Positions 1 to 30,730 of a stretch of 31,614 nt of DNA are shown one piece after another. The notes below the pieces were generated by a model. The model made no database searches, was not told the origin of the DNA, and saw only the letters and a program-made list of their open reading frames with translations. Position 1 is the stretch's first letter. Each line of letters starts with the position of its first letter. The DNA is from a virus, in the IMG/VR virus record IMGVR_UViG_3300043436_001747, positions 1 through 31,614 of that record. One strand, given 5' to 3'. Position numbers and translations under genes: made by a program.

Positions 1-3000
1 TTCTGGAGTTTGAGATGGCAATTTTCCATCAACAGAATGCGTGAAATCTGGTTCAATTTCTCTCTCTAATTCTTTTTTTGCTGTCTTTGGTTTTTTTTCT
101 CCTTTTCTTGCGGGCATAAACTGAATGCCCCCCAATGGTTGCTTCGTCGGCAACTCGCCAGCAACAGGTTTATCGTTCTTGTCAAGAATTGTGATTAGAT
201 TCTCGTCGAATACGACATAGTTGTATGTGCCTTCGCCTTGCTTGCGCGATGTTCCATCGAGGTAGCGTATGCCGGGAATACCTGCTGTAAGAAGTGCTTT
301 GGATGCTTCTTGAGGATTGCCAAGTCTACTATATGTTATTTGTCCTTGTTCGTTTGAATCATACTCATCGCTATCTGAACGATAATCAGCATTCATTTCA
401 GCAAGAGCTTTCTGCACCTTCTCGCTTTGCTCACTCAATGGCTTATCCCAATCGAGCAAGTCTTCGTCTTTTACATCAAGATCAACTTTATAAAGGTTTC
501 CTTCAAACTTTGCGAAACTACCTCCTTGGAGTAAACGAATGGCATCTTCCGCACCGGATATAAACTCTGTGTTGGACTGCACATTTGATCCAGATGATGC
601 CCATATTTCAGCTTGTCGTTTCCTCTGCGTAATTTCATTGATTATCGATGGCAGTGTAGTTTTTCCGTTTTTCCAAAAAGACTGAGCTTCTTTAAGGATT
701 TTTTGAGTAATTGGATTACTAGTCAAACCAACAAGAACGTCGCCTTTGGCATTCAATAACTTTACGCCAGACAGAGCGTCTCGGTAGTTTTTGGCTACCC
801 CTTTATTTTGTGCAAAGTAAAGCCCCCATCCATACGCCTGCGCTCCTTCGCCAGTGCCTATGTTTGCCAGCTTGAACTTGTCCACATCAAATGGAGTGCC
901 ATGATAAGCAGGAAGGAAGTTGATGAGTCCAGCGGATGACACTAAAGCATTTGAGAATGGCTTGATTACTGAGTCAGCTTCTGGTTTTGCACTTGTTTGA
1001 AGATCAGCGGGTTTGATGGTGTCAGCACCTATCATCTCCGAACTTTGTGGTTTTTCCGAGATAGTAGGTTCCATCTTGGTAAAAGTTTCAGATGGTATAA
1101 ATGGAGTTCCTGTTTCGCTATCTTTTCCGATAGGCCCAGAAACTTTCACAACATTATCAATTGGAATGCGTCCAGATGCCCTTAAATAGTCATCTGCGCC
1201 AATCATAAATAAATCAAGTCCCGCTGGGTCTATTGCAAGAACAACGCCTTGTTTGCCATGCGGAATATATGTTTCTGCTGTTACTACGTTCGTAGAAAGA
1301 TTGATTTCTTCTTCTGGAGAAATTACACCTCGACCATCTGTGTCAATGTATCCTTGGTTTTGGATTCTTTCCCAATCTTCTTTTGTTACTCCGCGAAACA
1401 AAACGCCTCCAGTAAGTTCAACTTCAAATTTGTCACCAAGAGCATCTGAATCAGCAATCTTTTTTCCTTTTTTCCATCGTCTACCAGTATCCCTTGGGCC
1501 AAACAATCCTTGCTCTATTTGCGTTGGAACACCTTCATTTAGTGATTCAAGATCGCTTAAATATCTGTCTCTTTCATCTAAACTTAACTTTTTTGCACCG
1601 GGATTCCTAACTTGAAATTCTAAATCGCGGACTTCTTTTCTTATTGCGTCATACTCTTCATAGAGTCTTGTTGCTTCAGGCGAATCAAACGATTCTTCGT
1701 TTGCCTTTGTATTAAAAGCTTCCAATGCGGACTTCTTTCTTGCATTTGCTTCAGCAAGCAATTTTTGAATATTTTCTATGCTTTGTGTTTCAACTTCACC
1801 TTCCATGCGTTCTGGCATGAAGTTGATTTTAGCAAATCCGTAGTTTACTGGAAGTTTTGTTGCGTTCTCGTTTGGAATCAATTCAGCAATGTGGTCAACG
1901 CGAATGGACATGATCGTGCGATTAGCATCCTTGTTCCGTGGATCGCCTTTTTTGCGCGGAATAGTTGTCCTATCAAGGTTTGTAAATTCAGTTCCTTTGT
2001 CGTAAAGGTTTAGAAGATCGTTAAAAATGTTCTTCTTCTGCAATGCAACTTGAGGATCGGCATCAAGACCAGTTTCTCCAGCTTTGCCTTGTTGCCAGTT
2101 ATTCAAATACTTTGAGAAATCATCAAATGTGCGCTCAAGGTTGTTGTCCCAGAAACGCAAGCGTCCCGGCATACGTTCGTTCCACAAGCGCATTTTATCA
2201 AATATGCGTCCAACAGAAATTGTGGTTACAAGGAAATTGCCTTTCTTAGACAAGTGCATTCCGATTGGCACAAGGTCATACATCTTTGGCGAGAATGCTT
2301 GATACTTGCCCTTGTCATTCATTACCGCTGCGTAATCCACAATGAACCTTGTTCCGTCTCCGCGAGCAATGGCATCATTAACTTTCAGCATATGCTCCTT
2401 GAGCGTCCTTGGAACAAGACTCTCTGGCATATCCTTGATAGCTTGAATTTGTGCTGGAGTAAATGTGCCGCGATATGTTTCTGAGCCTTCTGCTACTGGC
2501 TCAAAACGATTAGGAGTCCCGTAATCATCAGTATCAAGTGCCTCTGTAATTAGTTTTTTGCGATCCGCATCAATCTTCTTTGCGTCCTTCGCGTCATACA
2601 TGACAGGAGTTACCCCGTCTGGTTGCATGACCAAATCACGCGAGACAACAAGAGTTCCACCTTCGGGAACTTGCAGTCCTTGCGCTTCCGCTGGAATGTC
2701 GCCATATCCAGAAAGTTTCTTCATTCCAACATCAGTGCTTTGGAATGTTCCTTCCCGTGGATTTGGCGTTGTCACAGGCATTGACTCGCCAATTTGATTG
2801 CCGTCCTTGTCGAATACCTTGACCTTAAACTCTGTTTTGAATAGCGGAGAATCTTTTCCGAAACGCTCGATCAACGCAGAGTTTTTCATCATCTGCGCTT
2901 TGCTGATAGCAGGCATATCAGCTTCTTGCGCTGGAGGCGAAATTTCGCCATTTAAAGAAACTATCTGGCGCATTGCATCTCTTGCTGCCGCCATCGCTTC

Positions 3001-5847
3001 TGGTGGGAATTCTGCGCGTGTATTAGCGGCAGTAACAATGTCACCTCGCCCTCCCAATCCGTAAAAACGATTGATTGCACGATCCAGCAAGTTTTTCTTT
3101 GCTTTGATCCTTGCGCGATCCCACATGGCAAGCGTTGCGGAATCCAAATCATTTGCAAGATGCCTGCTGGACACTTCTCCAAGCAAGTCTGCCATGACTT
3201 CGCTCTTCATGTAGTTGGCAACTTTGTTTTCATCCAACTGACCACGGGATTCATCCCAAAGTTTGTTCAGCTTGGAAAATGCTTCTCTTCCTTGCGGGTC
3301 TAAATGGCGAAGGTATCCATCGTTGAAAAGTTCAACGAGTTTTGCCTTTGAGAAAATACCAGAAGTTGTCGCCTTGATATTTCCAGCGGCATCGCGGATT
3401 TCGTTTTGGAAAAGCATTGAACGCACTGGAGCAAGTGCTTCTTGGAACTCTGGCACAACATCCATGAAGTGCGATGTTTCGTGAACCAATGCTTCGGTTG
3501 GTGATTCACCAAACAACTTGATGCGCTCACGAATGGAGTCTGCATTGATAACAATCGATGGTTTTCTGCGGTCAAATGCAAGCCCTTGTTGTGCGGGATT
3601 TGAGTAAAATCCAGCTTGGCTTGCCATTTGAACAAGGTCAGCGTCTGGAACATTGCTGTTCGCTGGATCATTACGCAACCTTTGATAGATTTGATCGGTT
3701 GAAAGAACATTGAATCCAACATTGTTCTGACCGCTCTTCATAACACCATTGGTAATGTCTTGAAGGTTTGCGTATGTCTTCAAAAACTCCCTGCCAAATT
3801 CATTGCGCGTTTGCACATTGGCGCGTTTTACTTGATCAAGTGCAATCTTGTTTTTTTCTACTTCCGATTGAGCAAGTTTGATTTTTTGAGCATCTTCTCC
3901 TGATCCTTTGTAAGATGCCATCAAGTTTGCAAGGTCAGATTCACTTTCGTTCAGCTTTGTTTCTCTTGCAGAAATAGCATTATCAAAGTCAGAAATTTGA
4001 TCCAAGTTTGCTTGGGTTTCTGGATCAGCTTCTTGATACCTGCGGTGGATGCGAGAATCGTCTGAAATACGTTCACGTTGCTCAATTATAGGGTCATTGC
4101 CCATCATCTTACCCTTGATATGCTGCAATGCGCGTCCACCAAGAGTGATTGCAAGCCCATCAGCGAGCATCTGCTTCATCTCATCTGGATCAGCGGACTC
4201 TAATGCTCCAGTAGCAAGAGCAAGCGTAGTTCCGTGGATTCCAGTTTTTGCATACTCAACGGAGTTGGAAAGAATGTTATCAATCGTCTTTCCTCCACGG
4301 GAAAGGATTTTAGCCTTTAATGCTGACCCTTCAGCGGATTTGCCGAGCGTTTCAAACGTCTTTCCAAGAGGTGCAACCTTGCGAGCTTCTGCAAGCTCTC
4401 TAACAAATGTTGGAATTTCAAGTCCAACCTTCGTTCCTTTCAATACGCCTCTTGCGGCAACCCCGCCAAGAACGCCACTCAAAATACCAGTCATTGGCGA
4501 TTCGTCGGAAACGCTATAACCAGCAACACCACCAAGAACAGGAGCGGTAATGTTACCAAGAACTTTATTTACTTTTTCAGCGGCAGGTTTAAATCTTTCA
4601 ATCGCCTTCTCAATTTTTCCTGCACCTTGAGCAACCGCTTCTGCTCGCTCCGTGCGCTTTCTAAGCATTTCTGCAAATTCAGACTTTCGCAATGTTTGTG
4701 CTGCCTTGTTGATTTCAGCAATTTCATCAGCGGATTTGCCAATGTATTTCAATCCTTTTGCGATGCCTGTTCCTGCTTTTGCAACCGCTGAAACAGCACC
4801 CATTGTTCCCATGCCAAGCTCACCGGGAAGCAAGAACTCGCCAGCAATTCTTACGCGAGCATTTTCTTCTGGCAATTCAGACTCCATATCAGAAGTCAAA
4901 TTGTCAATTTGCTCACGCGCCATCGCGTCTTGTTGAACTTTTGCTTCCTCAACAGAAATATTGTCTCTTACTGCCAATTCTTCTGGCGATTCCATTTGCG
5001 ATTTTGCAATGTATGAAAGCGCATCTTTTGCCAGCGGATTATCAAGCATCCTGCTATAAACAGTTGGATGTTCACGGAAGTATTCAGCTTGAGCTTGCGA
5101 AACTAACCTTCGTCCTTTCCAGCGTTCAAATCGATCTTCTGGATTTACCAAGCCAAGTTTTTCACCAGCAGCATCCGCCCAACCAAAACCACCTTCTTGT
5201 GCTTTTGCTGTTGCCCAAGACACGCTTTCTGGAATCTCAAAAGCTGGAGCCATGAACGAGTAGAATGAACCTTTGGCTTTTTTAATGTTATTAGCAGCTT
5301 CTTCGTCACTGACAGTCATGTCAGTTGCCTTGACAACATCGCGTCCGAATTCCGCTGCTCCAAGTCCAACTTTTGCACCTAACTTTGAAACATTTTTAAC
5401 GACATCCCAAGCATCACCACCAAGATTATACCAATCCTCCCAAGATGTAGGAATTGATGGCATCTTTGACTTTTCAACCTCAAAAATGCGCCTTGCTTGA
5501 GCGTCATCAAGCGGAATATCTTTGCGAGATTGAGCTACCTTGTATTGTTCCTCATCGCTTAATGCGTTAAACAAACCTTTTTCTTCATCGTCAAGCTCGT
5601 TTGAACGTTTATTTGAAATAAGTCCAAGGAAAATATCTCCGCTGGATTTTTGCGTTGGAGCAGGTTCTAACCACCTTTCGGCAGACTCAAAAAAATCACC
5701 TTGCGGTTCTTCAACTGGAGTTTGTTGTGGTTCTGCCGAAACCTTCTGCTTAACATCTTCAAGAACGCTTACTGGTTTTTCTTCTTGAGGTTGTTGAGAT
5801 AGTTCCGCTTCGACTTCTGCCTTGATTTCGTCAAGAATGCTTGCCAT
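1..5847 (-). CDS. Giant polyvalent (probably injected) protein with HExxH and two ADP-ribosyltransferase-like regions; 3' end outside window
   Basis: The frame is open from ATG at 5847 to the window edge, giving at least 1949 residues with no stop, so the C-terminus is missing. It starts one base after the TAA of the preceding gene (TAAAATG). Seen in order: an acidic, Gln/Glu/Pro-rich N-terminus; two Gly/Ala-rich hydrophobic segments near 333-365 and 428-470; a charged, probably coiled-coil region near 588-695; HETSH at 789-793, a zinc-peptidase-type HExxH; a second charged helical region near 1345-1440; an Arg-Gly-led region at about 1484-1570 that looks ADP-ribosyltransferase-like; and a region starting with Tyr-His-Gly-Thr-Pro at 1648-1652 with IGTGEGAQAYGWGLYFA downstream, the pattern of the ART domain of phage polyvalent proteins. 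Motifs of the form I-[NQ]-F-[ML]-P-[AE] lie at 1341, 1642 and 1908. Such proteins are known as large phage multi-domain proteins thought to enter the cell with the DNA; that role here is inferred. Confidence 0.85.
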   Translation of the reverse strand, partial: MASILDEIKAEVEAELSQQPQEEKPVSVLEDVKQKVSAEPQQTPVEEPQGDFFESAERWLEPAPTQKSSGDIFLGLISNKRSNELDDEEKGLFNALSDEEQYKVAQSRKDIPLDDAQARRIFEVEKSKMPSIPTSWEDWYNLGGDAWDVVKNVSKLGAKVGLGAAEFGRDVVKATDMTVSDEEAANNIKKAKGSFYSFMAPAFEIPESVSWATAKAQEGGFGWADAAGEKLGLVNPEDRFERWKGRRLVSQAQAEYFREHPTVYSRMLDNPLAKDALSYIAKSQMESPEELAVRDNISVEEAKVQQDAMAREQIDNLTSDMESELPEENARVRIAGEFLLPGELGMGTMGAVSAVAKAGTGIAKGLKYIGKSADEIAEINKAAQTLRKSEFAEMLRKRTERAEAVAQGAGKIEKAIERFKPAAEKVNKVLGNITAPVLGGVAGYSVSDESPMTGILSGVLGGVAARGVLKGTKVGLEIPTFVRELAEARKVAPLGKTFETLGKSAEGSALKAKILSRGGKTIDNILSNSVEYAKTGIHGTTLALATGALESADPDEMKQMLADGLAITLGGRALQHIKGKMMGNDPIIEQRERISDDSRIHRRYQEADPETQANLDQISDFDNAISARETKLNESESDLANLMASYKGSGEDAQKIKLAQSEVEKNKIALDQVKRANVQTRNEFGREFLKTYANLQDITNGVMKSGQNNVGFNVLSTDQIYQRLRNDPANSNVPDADLVQMASQAGFYSNPAQQGLAFDRRKPSIVINADSIRERIKLFGESPTEALVHETSHFMDVVPEFQEALAPVRSMLFQNEIRDAAGNIKATTSGIFSKAKLVELFNDGYLRHLDPQGREAFSKLNKLWDESRGQLDENKVANYMKSEVMADLLGEVSSRHLANDLDSATLAMWDRARIKAKKNLLDRAINRFYGLGGRGDIVTAANTRAEFPPEAMAAARDAMRQIVSLNGEISPPAQEADMPAISKAQMMKNSALIERFGKDSPLFKTEFKVKVFDKDGNQIGESMPVTTPNPREGTFQSTDVGMKKLSGYGDIPAEAQGLQVPEGGTLVVSRDLVMQPDGVTPVMYDAKDAKKIDADRKKLITEALDTDDYGTPNRFEPVAEGSETYRGTFTPAQIQAIKDMPESLVPRTLKEHMLKVNDAIARGDGTRFIVDYAAVMNDKGKYQAFSPKMYDLVPIGMHLSKKGNFLVTTISVGRIFDKMRLWNERMPGRLRFWDNNLERTFDDFSKYLNNWQQGKAGETGLDADPQVALQKKNIFNDLLNLYDKGTEFTNLDRTTIPRKKGDPRNKDANRTIMSIRVDHIAELIPNENATKLPVNYGFAKINFMPERMEGEVETQSIENIQKLLAEANARKKSALEAFNTKANEESFDSPEATRLYEEYDAIRKEVRDLEFQVRNPGAKKLSLDERDRYLSDLESLNEGVPTQIEQGLFGPRDTGRRWKKGKKIADSDALGDKFEVELTGGVLFRGVTKEDWERIQNQGYIDTDGRGVISPEEEINLSTNVVTAETYIPHGKQGVVLAIDPAGLDLFMIGADDYLRASGRIPIDNVVKVSGPIGKDSETGTPFIPSETFTKMEPTISEKPQSSEMIGADTIKPADLQTSAKPEADSVIKPFSNALVSSAGLINFLPAYHGTPFDVDKFKLANIGTGEGAQAYGWGLYFAQNKGVAKNYRDALSGVKLLNAKGDVLVGLTSNPITQKILKEAQSFWKNGKTTLPSIINEITQRKRQAEIWASSGSNVQSNTEFISGAEDAIRLLQGGSFAKFEGNLYKVDLDVKDEDLLDWDKPLSEQSEKVQKALAEMNADYRSDSDEYDSNEQGQITYSRLGNPQEASKALLTAGIPGIRYLDGTSRKQGEGTYNYVVFDENLITILDKNDKPVAGELPTKQPLGGIQFMPARKGEKKPKTAKKELEREIEPDFTHSVDGKLPSQTPE

Positions 5848-7584: not shown

Positions 7585-8181
7585 TTAAACGCCACCAAAT
7601 TTAAGGTCAGACGAAGATGGAAGCGAGAACATATTTGCTTTTTTAGATGCCGCTCCCGCGCCTTGGTTTACAAGACCTGTTAAAGCGGGATTTACAGAGG
7701 TTGTAGGTGCATTAGAATATGTTGATGGCAGCATTCCCGCTGCTGCACCAAGATTTGCGAGTGCTTCTTCACGCGATTTGTTGAAATCAAATCCACCGCC
7801 AGTTGCTTGTTGTCCAGCGGTTGCTTGTGCTTGCTGTGATGCAAGAAGTGCGTTGGCATCGCGGATGGACTGCATTGAACCTATTGTTGCAAGTTCTTGA
7901 CGAGCCGCTTGCTCTGCTTGCTGTTGGCGTTGCGTTCCGGCAGTAATTTGCGATTGCTTTAATGCTTCTTCTTGAGCTTTTTGTGCAGCAGCAGCTTGAG
8001 CGGCTTGCTGTGCTTGCATTTGAGACAAAAATTCCATTGTTGGATCAACTGGTGTTCCTCCATCGCCGCCACCTTTTTTACTTTTAGTTTTTGTTCCAAA
8101 AATAGCTTGCCGTCCATAATAACCAACAGGATTCAAAAATTTATATGGTGAATTTTTTGAAACCTTTAATGATCCACCCAT
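7585..8181 (-). CDS. Small Gln/Ala-rich virion protein, second copy of a pair
   Basis: 198 residues, beginning MGG and rich in Gln and Ala. It starts one base after the TAA of its neighbour (TAATATG). The end of the upstream gene supplies GGAGGA about 9 bases before this ATG, one of the few Shine-Dalgarno-like sequences in the window. It shares a plan with the upstream 162-residue protein: a basic or polar N-terminus, a V-D-P motif followed by a Gln-rich helix, an AAR segment, a glycine-rich linker, and a C-terminus of the form NMF-S-[LV]-P...FGG[AV]. I read the two as diverged tandem paralogues. The position between internal-virion-like genes suggests a small structural or ejection protein. 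No enzymatic motif is visible and the exact role is unknown. Confidence 0.7.
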   Translation of the reverse strand: MGGSLKVSKNSPYKFLNPVGYYGRQAIFGTKTKSKKGGGDGGTPVDPTMEFLSQMQAQQAAQAAAAQKAQEEALKQSQITAGTQRQQQAEQAARQELATIGSMQSIRDANALLASQQAQATAGQQATGGGFDFNKSREEALANLGAAAGMLPSTYSNAPTTSVNPALTGLVNQGAGAASKKANMFSLPSSSDLKFGGV

Positions 8182-8182
8182 A

Positions 8183-8671
8183 TTATGCTCCTCCGAAAGT
8201 TAAACCAGTTGTAGTTGGAACGGAGAACATATTTGAGCGTTGCTGTGTTCCACCTGCGCCAGCATTTGCTGCCATTGCTGCCGCTCCTTGTTGTCCTCCC
8301 ATTGTTCCAAGAGATGCTTGACGATACTGACCAGCATCACCAACAGGAGATGGCGTTGCTCCTCCAACTGGAGCAGATGCCTTTTGTGCAGCAGCCATAG
8401 TAGCTTGGTCTTGCGCTTGCTGACCAACATTCATTCCACTCAATGCGCTTCGTGCAGCAGCTTCGCCTTGTTGTTGAGCTTGCATTCCCGCCTGTTGTTG
8501 CGCTTGAATTTGAGCCTGCCTTTGGCGTTCAGCTTCAGCGGCAGCTTGTGATTCTGCCATTGACGCTTGCTGCTGTTGCTGCATAGCCATAAATGCAATC
8601 ATTGGATCAACTCCAGAAGGCTGTTGTTGTTGCTGTTGTTGCTGTTTAGGTTGTGATCGTCTTCCACCCAT
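8183..8671 (-). CDS. Small poly-Gln/Ala-rich virion protein, first copy of a pair
   Basis: 162 residues, beginning MGGRRSQPK and then eight consecutive Gln residues, followed by a Gln/Ala/Met-rich helix and a Gly/Ala-rich second half. It ends SNMFSVPTTTGLTFGGA, matching the end of the next gene (NMFSLPSSSDLKFGGV), so the two are probably tandem paralogues. It follows the YkgJ-like gene after a 35-base A/T-rich gap with no Shine-Dalgarno sequence. Low complexity makes a homology-based name unsafe. The composition resembles small internal or head-tail proteins of podoviruses, and a virion role is inferred from context only. The CAA/CAG tract that encodes the poly-Gln could vary in length by replication slippage. 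Confidence 0.7.
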   Translation of the reverse strand: MGGRRSQPKQQQQQQQQPSGVDPMIAFMAMQQQQQASMAESQAAAEAERQRQAQIQAQQQAGMQAQQQGEAAARSALSGMNVGQQAQDQATMAAAQKASAPVGGATPSPVGDAGQYRQASLGTMGGQQGAAAMAANAGAGGTQQRSNMFSVPTTTGLTFGGA

Positions 8672-8706: not shown

Positions 8707-9003
8707 TTAACTTTGTTCAAGAACTTTTTTGCGAGCTTCTCTGCAAAGATCACTGCCGGGTTCAAATTGCCTGCAAGAATTTGGTCTGTCATTGTAAACC
8801 TTACAACAAACAGATTGACCAACTTTTCCTTCAAGAGCAATGCAGCGATTGTCAATTGTTTTCATCAGTGGATAATCTGTTCTGACCATTTCATTAGGTA
8901 TGTTTATTGCGTCTGATCGATCTCGTTTTAAGACAGGCCATGACCATTTAAAACAACAACAAGCACCGCATAATTTGCAGTCAAATTCATCTATTTGTTC
9001 CAT
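8707..9003 (-). CDS. YkgJ-like cysteine-cluster protein
   Basis: 98 residues with the cysteine pattern of the YkgJ/UPF0153 family: C9, C12, C15, C16 and C17 in a CKLCGACCC segment, then C54, C66 and C67, an RP pair (73-74) followed by C77, and C87 after an EPGSD segment. The family is annotated as metal- or Fe-S-binding and its reaction is poorly known. The ATG at 9003 lies inside the 3' end of the PP-loop gene (13-base overlap), so the two are translated as a coupled pair, which suggests a shared function. The pair is unusual inside a block of virion genes and is best regarded as an accessory (moron-like) unit. The family assignment is strong; what it modifies is unknown. Confidence 0.85.
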   Translation of the reverse strand: MEQIDEFDCKLCGACCCFKWSWPVLKRDRSDAINIPNEMVRTDYPLMKTIDNRCIALEGKVGQSVCCKVYNDRPNSCRQFEPGSDLCREARKKVLEQS

Positions 9004-9827
9004 GTAACAGGACGAAAACCAAGGTCATCATTAACCAAATCTTCGTATGGCACAAGGTGAGAAATGTTTGATATTTTAGCCTTTAATTTTGGACAATCAA
9101 CATACTTTCCTTCATGCCTGTTTACGCAGTTGAAGCAAATAGGATAGAAGTCTGCATTAAGCGACTTGTCGGGATTGTTTTTCCATTTGTGGTAATCTTT
9201 CACATACCTTGTCGGGTCTGGCTGAACTCCGTTGTCTTCCAGATACTGAAAAATATCGTCATCAGTCCAATCTCGCATTGGATACAATGACATTGGCGAA
9301 TTGTCCGCATAGCGAATATCAACTGCAAGCGGAACATGACCCTTAATCAAATCTGTGTCGCTATACTTGGTTCCAATATACACTGCTCCCCAAGGCCAAT
9401 TAAACGTGCCTGTAGGACGCTGTAGAACATCAGTAACGCCACACAAGAAATCCTCGCTTTCCTTTGGTCTTTCAGTCCCAAGAGAAAGACACACGGCAGT
9501 TCCTTGACCCCATTGATAGTATTTGATGAAATCAAAACGCAACTCGCCAGTCTCAACATCAGGCCCATCCGCAATCGCTATTTTGCTTGGAGCGTAATCG
9601 TAGACCTCAAGTTTCCACTCTTTAATCAAACGATCCGAATAAGCGTATCGTTCACGCAACTTTGGTTCACGATACTGGATGACAGGAAGATCAATTCCTG
9701 CTCCAAACTTGATCAAATGCAGCAGTGCCGTGGAGTCTTTACCTCCACTCCACAAAACCACTGCTCTGGGCCACCTTTTGTTCCATTCTTTGATTTTATG
9801 TATTGTTGTATCTATTAGTTGTTTCAT
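8991..9827 (-). CDS. PP-loop ATPase of the PAPS reductase/sulfurtransferase type
   Basis: 278 residues. SGGKDS at 27-32 is the PP-loop that adenylates substrates in PAPS reductases, ATP sulfurylase small subunits and related thiolation enzymes. A YPMRDWTDDDIFQYL segment (182-196) is also typical of the superfamily. Near the C-terminus C231-x-x-C234 and C245 may bind a metal or Fe-S cluster, which fits phage and DndC-like members more than a plain sulfate-assimilation enzyme. The start codon overlaps the preceding stop (TAATG), and the end overlaps the YkgJ-like gene by 13 bases. The likely chemistry is ATP-dependent transfer of sulfur or activation of a nucleic acid or small molecule. True PAPS reductase activity is possible but not shown. 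The partner protein with many cysteines supports sulfur or metal chemistry. Confidence 0.88.
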   Translation of the reverse strand: MKQLIDTTIHKIKEWNKRWPRAVVLWSGGKDSTALLHLIKFGAGIDLPVIQYREPKLRERYAYSDRLIKEWKLEVYDYAPSKIAIADGPDVETGELRFDFIKYYQWGQGTAVCLSLGTERPKESEDFLCGVTDVLQRPTGTFNWPWGAVYIGTKYSDTDLIKGHVPLAVDIRYADNSPMSLYPMRDWTDDDIFQYLEDNGVQPDPTRYVKDYHKWKNNPDKSLNADFYPICFNCVNRHEGKYVDCPKLKAKISNISHLVPYEDLVNDDLGFRPVTWNK

Positions 9828-20532: not shown

Positions 20533-22194
20533 TTACACGACTGTCCAAACTCCACCAGATGGAACTGTAACAACCACTCCAGATGCAATTGTGATTGGGC
20601 CAAAACTGCCAGCGTTTATTCCAACTGGAATTGAATAAGATGTATTCACTGTTTGTCCATTCAGAAAGAAGATGGCATCAGTTCCTGCTCCAGTAGCTCC
20701 ACCCGCCGATCCTGATGGGCCAGTCGCGCCTGTTGCCCCCTGTGCTCCAACTCCGGTTGCACCAGTTGCTCCTGTTGAACCAATTCCAGTTGCGCCTGTT
20801 AAACCTTGAATGCCAGTGCTGCCTGTTGAGCCTTGTCCGCCTGCAATTCCAGTGGCTCCTGTGCTGCCTTGTGTTCCTTGAATACCCGTTGAGCCAGTTG
20901 CGCCAATTCCAGTCGCTCCAGTGCTGCCTTGCAATCCAGTAGCTCCAGTAAGACCAGAAGTAACAATTGCAAATATCAATTGCTGATTGTTTATGAATTG
21001 CGATGTTCCTCCAGATGCAACAAGTGTTACTGTAATAGAAATATAACTATTAAGAACAACAGTTGGGGTAGCGGTAATCCTCCAAGTTTGGAAATTGTTT
21101 GAATTGCTTTGGTCTTGAACAATGAATGTATCGTTTGTTTTGAACAGAGGAAAGAAGACATCAATGTCATTTCCAAGCGCATCAATATGTGAAAGCGTTA
21201 CAATTGTAGATGCTGTTTGCGTAGCGTTATCCCAATACAATGTATTGATTGCAGGAACGCCGCTCGTTATAGTTGTGTCAGCTTTGTAGTTGTAAAATGT
21301 AGATGATTGTCCAGTAAGTCCAGTAGCACCTTGAATTCCTGTTGCGCCTGTGGCTCCAATCCCTGTAGCTCCAGTGCTTCCTTCTGGCCCAGTTGATCCA
21401 GTTGAACCTTCCACACCAGTTGCTCCAGTGGCTCCCACGCCAGTTGATCCTTGCAATCCTGTTGCTCCAGTTGACCCAGTCAAACCTTGAATTCCTGTAG
21501 CACCAGTAGTTCCCGCTCCAGTAGCTCCAACTGGGCCAGTAGAACCAGTTGCGCCAATTGAACCAGTGCTTCCAGTTGCTCCAATTCCACCATCTCCAGA
21601 AAGTGCAATTTGCCAGTCTGCAAAAGTTCCAGAACCTTGAACTTTATCTACATAAATTTTTACAAAATCATCTGCAACTTCAATAATATTTCCTTCAACC
21701 CAATCAAAAGGATAAGCAGAATTAGCAACGGCACGAACTCTTGATCCGTATGTCCATCCAACATCTGCTGAAGTAAAATAAAATGTTCTTAATCCAACTT
21801 GAATTGGATGCGATGTAAAACTTTGACGAGTAATTACTGGAGATATACCACTTGCTCCTTGCAACCCCGTTGATCCAGTTGACCCTGTTGCTCCAAGATT
21901 TCCCGTTGCTCCTTGAGTTCCTGTTGCTCCCGTAGCTCCAAACCCCGTTGCCCCTTTTGGGCCAGTTGCTCCAAGATTGCCAGTTGCTCCTCTTAAACCA
22001 CTTGCCCCAGTTGATCCAATTCCAGTTGAGCCTGTTAAACCTTGCTGTCCAGTTGCTCCAATAGCTCCTGTTGCACCTATCCCAGTTGCGCCTGTAGCTC
22101 CAACATAAGGCCAGTTGCAATCCATAGAATTTAATGGAGCGCATCCGCAATTTGAAGAGCTTTGTGGGCTTGGAACCCAATTGAATTTTGGCAT
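20533..22194 (-). CDS. Collagen-like multi-domain fibre protein
   Basis: 553 residues. A short N-terminus with cysteines (C16, C18, C26) is followed by three collagen-like stalks of Gly-x-Thr and Gly-x-Gly-type triplets at about 32-117, 202-296 and 415-503. Between them lie two globular beta domains, about 118-201 and 297-414, and at the end a short tip domain (504-553) ending in [10 protein letters not shown]. The tip matches that of the 190-residue neighbour. The stalk DNA is a run of near-identical triplet units, which makes recombination or slippage likely. It starts 18 bases after the SprT-like gene, behind an A/T-rich leader without a Shine-Dalgarno sequence. A trimeric fibre that holds several glycan-binding domains at different distances is the natural reading. 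Confidence 0.85.

Positions 22195-28657: not shown

Positions 28658-30730
<2,073 letters not shown>

What the first reader, a model, noticed from the sequence alone, without database searches (positions are those of the whole stretch)
1..5847. A polyvalent protein of at least 1949 residues with HExxH and two ART-like regions as the last gene of a virion block
The frame from 5847 stays open to the window edge. It combines an HExxH motif (789-793), an Arg-Gly-led ADP-ribosyltransferase-like region (about 1484-1570) and a second region with the Tyr-His-Gly-Thr-Pro and Gly-Leu-Tyr-Phe-Ala pattern of the ART domain of polyvalent phage proteins (1648-1890). Two potential ADP-ribosyltransferase modules plus a protease motif in one injected protein would be an unusual early anti-host weapon. 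Established knowledge: polyvalent phage proteins string together effector domains and are thought to enter with the DNA. The domain calls and the injection are inference.
Basis: partly seen in the sequence, partly recalled or inferred. Interest (0 to 1): 0.75.

Follow-up and report, generated by a model that had tools for sequence, protein, structure and literature searches.

The report
Modular phage effector protein with joints
A very large virus protein, probably carried into bacteria with the viral DNA, is built from exchangeable parts separated by the same short peptide, and one of its parts is an ADP-ribosyltransferase that is itself a mosaic of exchanged pieces; this suggests where such giant proteins may be cut or recombined.

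Summary
The open frame is real: ATG at 5847, open to the window edge, 1949 residues; eight close relatives have 2033-2774. It is a phage polyvalent protein, a class described in 2017. Of three domain calls, the second ART (H1649, Y1677, D1881) is supported by Pfam ART-PolyVal above its cut-off. The HExxH region is supported as zincin-like by H789, E790, H793 and E883, kept in 23 of 23 aligned sequences, and a middling structural match. The first ART region (1484-1570) has no ART profile match and its model failed, so 'two ARTs' is not shown. Two unmentioned features are more interesting. (1) A short joint, consensus [LI]-[QN]-F-[ML]-P-[AE]-[ER], lies between modules and is a frequent homology breakpoint: 73 strict-form joints in 24 such proteins, none in 61,425 residues of other frames of the same loci. 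(2) The ART is a nested mosaic: conserved catalytic blocks enclose two variable slots, 10 types each, 17 combinations in 18 modules. I propose that the joints are cleavage sites of a bacteriophage polyprotein, recombination seams, or both. Cleavage is inferred; other lineages show different, weaker joint motifs.

The parts
1..5847 (-). polyvalent protein gene, 1949+ residues, cut by the end of the record
   Evidence: eight relatives of 2033-2774 residues
3055..3801 (-). zincin-like region, about aa 683-931
   Evidence: VIA-align: 11 lethal factor entries among 50 shown, Z up to 5.7, rmsd 4.9; 23-sequence alignment
3469..3483 (-). HExxH, aa 789-793 (HETSH)
   Evidence: H, E and H kept in 23 of 23 aligned sequences
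3199..3201 (-). E883, candidate third zinc ligand on a later helix
   Evidence: kept in 23 of 23; helix 233-250 of the model
1813..2580 (-). WYL-like region, about aa 1090-1345 (tentative)
   Evidence: VIA-align: BrxR Z 8.3, PafBC Z 8.2, CapW Z 7.1; best Foldseek E of any solved chain 0.43
1807..1821 (-). joint 1, FMPER, aa 1343-1347
   Evidence: 7 sequences; no ART profile
904..918 (-). joint 2, FLPAY (looser form), aa 1644-1648, leading into the ART
163..906 (-). ART-PolyVal module, about aa 1648-1895, H1649-Y1677-D1881
   Evidence: PF18760 E 7.5e-9; conservation
502..810 (-). variable central slot of the ART, about aa 1680-1782
283..426 (-). second variable slot of the ART, about aa 1808-1855
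106..120 (-). joint 3, FMPAR, aa 1910-1914
1..105 (-). start of a further module cut by the record end; resembles the one after the matching joint of L008
   Evidence: HSP of L008 to the window reaching aa 1949

Best explanation
It is a phage polyvalent protein: a virion-associated polypeptide that is probably ejected into the host with the DNA. An N-terminal scaffold conserved among close relatives (about 1340 residues, with a zincin-like domain) is followed by a variable series of effector modules, here an Arg-Gly module of unknown function, an H-Y-D ADP-ribosyltransferase and a further module cut by the record end. The modules are separated by a short joint peptide (consensus [LI]-[QN]-F-[ML]-P-[AE]-[ER]). 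I propose that the joints are the places where the chain is cut, most simply by its own zincin, so that each module works on its own, and that module exchange between phages often uses the same joints. The ART module is itself diversified by exchange of two internal variable slots, probably under selection from host targets or host counter-measures. Shown: open frame, motifs, joints, breakpoints at joints, slot mosaic. Inferred: packaging, ejection, cleavage, ADP-ribosylation, target.
For: ART: PF18760, H 25/25, Y 25/25, D 22/25 of aligned sequences. Zincin: H, E, H and E883 kept in 23 of 23; 11 lethal-factor entries among the 50 shown by VIA-align, Z up to 5.7. Joints: 73 strict matches in 61,129 aa of 24 proteins (window and relatives), 70 of them in the 27,184 aa C-terminal parts, and 0 in 61,425 aa of other plus-strand frames of at least 150 aa of the same loci. 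Outside F-[ML]-P, which the pattern fixes, only the Q/N before it (2.7 bits) and the two residues after it (2.2 each) stand out in 45 non-redundant sites. Breakpoints: 304 of 1048 HSP ends within 20 aa of a joint against 106.5 expected; 97 of 492 HSP starts lie at -6 to 0 and 90 of 556 HSP ends at +2 to +5. Pairings: 23 upstream and 40 downstream sequence types in 52 pairings. Slots: 10 x 10 types in 17 combinations among 18 modules. The catalytic N block is 85-100% identical to the window's in protein within the family but only 53-84% at third codon positions in the printed pairs. Virion context; PHROG phrog_873, filed under head and packaging and named endolysin, matches aa 1778-1900, E 5.5e-13.
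Against: No cleavage was observed. Joints are not the only breakpoints: 744 of 1048 HSP ends are more than 20 aa away, and larger piles lie 33-54 aa before a joint (166 of 492 starts) and 48-61 aa after one (101 of 556 ends). Phe at joints uses TTC in 38 of 45 non-redundant sites against 35% in the background (p about 1e-11), which also fits copying of a DNA seam; Pro codons are not biased, 30 of 45 against 57%, p 0.12. Several proteins with other joint-like motifs (NYSI or FSI: L053, L054, L056, L058-L062) contain no HExxH (other peptidase signatures were not sought), so an embedded HExxH zincin cannot be the general cutter. In a prophage set the joint test was weak: 0 of 46 proteins at empirical p 0.01 or less, 4 of 46 at 0.05 or less. 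None of four cultured-phage proteins has the joint. The zincin model has pLDDT 73 and pTM 0.55, and Foldseek found no solved match at E 0.001 or less. VIA warns that Z under 8 may mean only a common arrangement. Sequences are related, so counts are not independent events.
Confidence: 0.5

Rival explanations
1. The joints are recombination seams only. A short shared DNA word lets a phage annealing recombinase exchange modules, and the peptide has no function in the protein.
For: Breakpoints at the joint, TTC bias, Erf-like annealing protein and exonuclease genes downstream in relative L003; Rad52-like phage recombinases promote mosaics between diverged sequences (PMC3945230, abstract seen).
Against: Pro and the following codons vary; Leu replaces Met by other codons at some joints; other lineages show different peptides at the matching place before the ART.
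Confidence: 0.33
2. The joints are binding or unfolding signals, for packaging, ejection or docking on the scaffold, rather than cut sites.
For: They recur through the exchangeable part and are nearly absent from the scaffold: 70 of 73 strict matches.
Against: No partner is known; nothing tested here points to binding.
Confidence: 0.12
3. One reading: one injected weapon with two ARTs and a protease that attacks host proteins.
For: One ART and a zincin-like domain are supported; the first region has an invariant Arg-Gly and Asp-Asp in 7 of 7 sequences.
Against: No ART profile for the first region and its Ser position varies; its model failed.
Confidence: 0.15

Closest known systems
Polyvalent proteins of phages and conjugative elements (Iyer et al. 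2017, PMC5512222)
   Same: Large multidomain protein beside virion genes, zincin-like peptidase with ART; the paper already proposes release of domains by the peptidase and compares them with viral polyproteins (passages, sections 33 and 34 seen).
   Different: In what I read (find searches, sections 29, 33 and 34) no recurring joint peptide is described ('linker', 'short motif' and 'signature motif' occur 0 times) and no slot mosaic inside the ART.
ART-PolyVal, PF18760 (grouped with Tox-ART-HYD2 in that paper)
   Same: H-Y-D residues and YHGTP, GTGEGAQ, GLYFA blocks.
   Different: Variable slots of 70-103 and 48-95 residues exchanged independently.
Polymorphic toxins (PMC3482391, start of the abstract in a search listing only)
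   Same: Diversity of toxin modules generated by recombination with cassettes.
   Different: Here several modules in a row with joints between them and a phage virion context; no immunity gene was looked for.
Environmental Caudovirales polyvalent proteins in BFVD, e.g. A0A6J7WBL0
   Same: Predicted structure matches the model of aa 641-1345, E 4.1e-13, TMq 0.47.
   Different: Named only by domain; joints not examined there.

Membership tests
Phage polyvalent protein | two or more domains of disparate activity in one polypeptide | tested here: met
   ART-PolyVal plus zincin-like region; the second rests on motif and a middling fold match
Phage polyvalent protein | encoded beside virion genes | tested here: met
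   phrog_511 internal virion protein and tail-type matches in the same block
Phage polyvalent protein | enters the host with the DNA | not testable with these tools
   needs virion proteomics or an ejection assay
ART-PolyVal PF18760 (aa 1648-1895) | score above Pfam gathering cut-off | tested here: met
   36.9 against 31.2 bits for the module alone; 26.2, below it, for the whole protein
ART-PolyVal PF18760 (aa 1648-1895) | H-Y-D catalytic residues | tested here: met
   H 25/25, Y 25/25, D 22/25 aligned sequences
ART-PolyVal PF18760 (aa 1648-1895) | ADP-ribosylation activity | not testable with these tools
   enzyme assay needed
R-S-E type ART (aa 1484-1570) | match to an ART family | tested here: not met
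   best Pfam hits unrelated, E 0.014 or worse; hhalign to the second ART probability 0.1 per cent
R-S-E type ART (aa 1484-1570) | conserved Arg, Ser and Glu | tested here: not met
   Arg 7/7; Ser position varies (S, A, T); Asp-Asp, not Glu, at the position I took for it
R-S-E type ART (aa 1484-1570) | ART fold | tested here: inconclusive
   model mean pLDDT 40.7
Zincin metallopeptidase | HExxH and a downstream helical Glu | tested here: met
   23 of 23 each; on helices in the model
Zincin metallopeptidase | zincin fold | tested here: inconclusive
   lethal factor rows, Z up to 5.7, rmsd 4.9, 169 aligned; no Foldseek match at E 0.001 or less
Self-cleaving polyprotein | recurring site between modules | tested here: met
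Self-cleaving polyprotein | cleavage at the sites | not testable with these tools
   needs protein chemistry

The most novel reading that the evidence does not exclude
Phage polyvalent proteins are true polyproteins punctuated by lineage-specific cut sites (F-[ML]-P in this lineage; [FY]-S-[IL], [LIMTVY]-[FY]-Q, R-F-A-V or L-L-A-K in others), which serve at the same time as seams for shuffling effector modules; and their ADP-ribosyltransferase is a combinatorial enzyme whose catalytic frame is constant while two inner slots are exchanged independently, even between phages with different joints.
Probability: 0.35. Interest if true: 0.85.

Novelty: new variant of a known kind. Interest (0 to 1): 0.62.

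Why it matters
It has been proposed since 2017 that the peptidase in polyvalent proteins releases their domains, but in the parts of that paper I read no cut sites are named. The joints give precise, testable positions. The slot mosaic of the ART suggests a way by which phages vary an enzyme's target or escape host counter-measures without losing catalysis.

Tried and rejected
Two-ART reading: rejected as unproven. A first combined alignment of both ART regions misplaced the distant relatives of the first one, and so did a later one; the smaller alignment A6 was used for folding and the model still failed. Foldseek against solved structures gave nothing at E 0.001 or less for aa 641-1345; profile searches of solved-structure sequences gave no ART (best E 0.049, to an unrelated coiled-coil protein; none). 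Cultured phages: 4 of 50,697 records match the protein at E 1e-5 or less, all in the ART region, and none of the four proteins read has an F[ML]P site, one of them cut at the edge of the stretch. More relatives of the first region: 6 loci, all on contigs already held, and no further ones in the held frames. Per-protein de novo motif search (of the family only the window, L003 and L006 were given): nothing for the window; repeats in L006 and L003 (FMP.R), L053, L054, L059 and L060 (NYSI), L057 (RFQP), L058 (FSIS); chance-like patterns or nothing in the rest. Seed test with the exact 3-4 letters before the ART: 13 of 49 proteins, family members among them, at empirical p 0.05 or less and 4 of 49 at 0.01 or less in the viral set, the window itself 0.65 because FLP and FMP differ; prophage set 4 of 46 and 0 of 46. 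The class counts (F[ML]P 53 against 6.2 in 14 proteins; [FY]S[IL] 48 against 20.1 in 16; [LIMTVY][FY]Q 42 against 21.8 in 10; FAV 5 against 1.0 in 1; [LI]LAK 4 against 0.4 in 1) used patterns chosen after looking, so they are not a held-out test. The shuffle test (window 3 sites against 0.002; nine proteins 0 to 4) and the joint pattern were also written after seeing the sites; the other frames are their control. The 'constant' blocks are partly so by construction, as modules were picked by those blocks; one search compared an alignment made without that pick. A paper search for the letters FMPER gave only unrelated titles among the 20 of 29 listed.

Full report
The observation. The frame from ATG 5847 on the minus strand is open to the record's end and gives 1949 residues. 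The window is a whole IMG/VR record, so the gene is cut. Eight viral contigs carry relatives, best segments 44-99% identical. Their proteins, read to the stop codon, have 2033-2774 residues.

The domains. The module at about 1648-1895 is an ART of the polyvalent type: PF18760 at 7.5e-9 and 36.9 bits against a cut-off of 31.2 when scanned alone, and 24 of 25 aligned sequences match at E 0.01 or less. In the whole protein it scored 26.2, below the cut-off. H1649 and Y1677 are kept in 25 of 25 and D1881 in 22 of 25, the H-Y-D arrangement given for this clade in PMC5512222 (passage seen). PHROG phrog_873 (category head and packaging, named endolysin) matches aa 1778-1900 at 5.5e-13. The HExxH at 789-793 and E883 are kept in 23 of 23 aligned sequences. 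A model of aa 641-1345 (pLDDT 73, pTM 0.55) gave no Foldseek match at E 0.001 or less among solved structures but six among predicted viral proteins, the best named ART-PolyVal-like. VIA-align placed 11 anthrax lethal factor entries, a known zincin, among the 50 shown, Z up to 5.7 (rmsd 4.9, 169 residues); some rows span 43-685 of the model, others stop at 283-305. PMC5512222 relates these peptidases to the same protein. This agreement is suggestive, not proof. Pfam found no family at E 1 or less in the window's own segment; M48 matched 3 of 23 members, best E 0.002. The region 1484-1570 has no ART support and its Ser position varies; its function is open.

The joints. While comparing relatives I saw the same short peptide between unrelated modules: NFMPERM at 1342, the looser NFLPAY at 1643 and QFMPAR at 1909 in the window. 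In 24 related proteins, the window among them (several cut by contig ends, and one, L022, without a joint, its contig ending early), the strict form F[ML]P[AEQS][ERDQ] occurs 73 times in 61,129 residues, 70 of these in the C-terminal 27,184. Other plus-strand frames of at least 150 residues in the same loci have 0 in 61,425. For the looser pattern one search listed 93 hits. Three were dropped before the counts: one in a domain of L029, one variant near the start of L038, and one in the first 200 residues of L030, which is cut at its 5' side and where it may be a true joint. Two FLPA hits near the starts of L026 and L029 had been left out before. Ninety remained, and 45 after removing near-copies. 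Besides F-[ML]-P, which the pattern fixes, the preceding Q or N carries 2.7 bits, the two residues after it 2.2 each, and other positions at most 1.7.

Exchange at the joints. HSPs of at least 60% identity between the C-terminal parts end near joints more often than random positions do: 304 of 1048 ends within 20 residues against 106.5 expected. Of 492 starts 97 lie at -6 to 0, and of 556 ends 90 at +2 to +5. The other 744 ends are farther away. Larger piles lie 33-54 residues before a joint (166 of 492 starts) and 48-61 after one (101 of 556 ends); I read these as the shared linker before the ART joint and the edge of the ART's first slot, which is inference. Pairs are counted in both directions and are not independent. 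Twenty-three upstream and 40 downstream types occur in 52 pairings; the largest upstream type has 11 downstream partners, but seven of these share the letters MEGE before they diverge; the next has 7 partners, two of them alike. The window and L005 are 99% identical over aa 641-1345, yet L005 lacks the Arg-Gly module and its ART differs in the slots. In L003 an Erf-like annealing protein and an exonuclease lie downstream; such recombinases are known to make mosaics between diverged sequences (PMC3945230, abstract).

The ART as a mosaic. All 15 family proteins with this ART (of 24) and three from phages with another joint-like motif or none recognised (L053-L055) have conserved blocks (32 and 25 residues) around two slots. 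At 60% identity over 70% of length the central slot falls into 10 types, the second slot into 10 types, and 17 combinations occur in 18 modules. The window shares its central slot with L053 (75%, second slot 23%) and its second slot with L026 (98%, central 18%). Against the window the N block is 85-100% identical in protein within the family and 76-79% in L053-L055. Between the family pairs printed it is 81-95% identical in DNA and 53-84% at third positions, while the scaffolds of the most distant of those pairs are 28-31% identical in protein. So the ART has moved between scaffolds, and its catalytic blocks appear to be held at protein level.

How it may work. I commit to a polyprotein: modules ejected as one chain and cut at the joints, most simply by the zincin in the scaffold. 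Cutting by an embedded peptidase was proposed before (PMC5512222, section 33); the joints would be the sites. Against this stands the TTC bias at joint Phe codons (38 of 45 against 35%, p about 1e-11), while Pro codons show none (p 0.12), which fits a copied DNA seam. Both roles can hold together.

Wider pattern. Other lineages have other repeats at the place before the ART and elsewhere in the same protein: NYSI or FSI, RFQP, RFAV, LLAK, LFQ. Some of these proteins lack HExxH. The prophage set gave weak support, and the four cultured-phage proteins have no F[ML]P. I therefore regard the rule as firm for this family and as a lead beyond it.

Novelty. Polyvalent proteins with a zincin and an ART are known. 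In five paper searches on the subject and one for the joint letters I found no description of recurring joints or of slot exchange in the ART; the searches cover open-licence PMC only, and I judged from listings, from passages of PMC5512222 and PMC9503650 and from sections 29, 33 and 34 of the former.

Noticed in passing
window 1813-2580 (aa about 1090-1345): The best VIA rows for the second half of the scaffold are WYL-domain regulators: BrxR Z 8.3, PafBC 8.2, CapW 7.1. A WYL-like domain in an ejected phage protein would be curious; Foldseek E-values were not significant.
   Followed up: partly
window 8991-9827: A protein matching phosphoadenosine phosphosulfate reductase families (phrog_424, E 2.7e-12) sits inside the virion block; its C-terminus (GFRPVTWNK) recurs, with small changes, in a frame at the same place in L002-L009.
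   Followed up: partly
window 7585-8181 and 8183-8671: Two consecutive small proteins end in similar tails, NMFSLPSSSDLKFGGV and NMFSVPTTTGLTFGGA, and similar tails end small frames at that place in relatives; meaning unknown.
   Followed up: no
L140 (Verrucomicrobiota MAG contig): A polyvalent protein has RQFMPAAYHGTP before its ART, as in the window family; its two other F[ML]P sites (0.45 expected) do not look like joints.
   Followed up: partly
L045, L048: Two polyvalent proteins with relatives of the window's Arg-Gly module carry two VAPRQQV peptides each, one on either side of it, in the stretch printed, possibly another joint class.
   Followed up: no
window 20533-22194 and 28658-30730: Two collagen-like or tail-fibre-like proteins matching overlapping sets of tail families, with long frames on the opposite strand nearby.
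   Followed up: no
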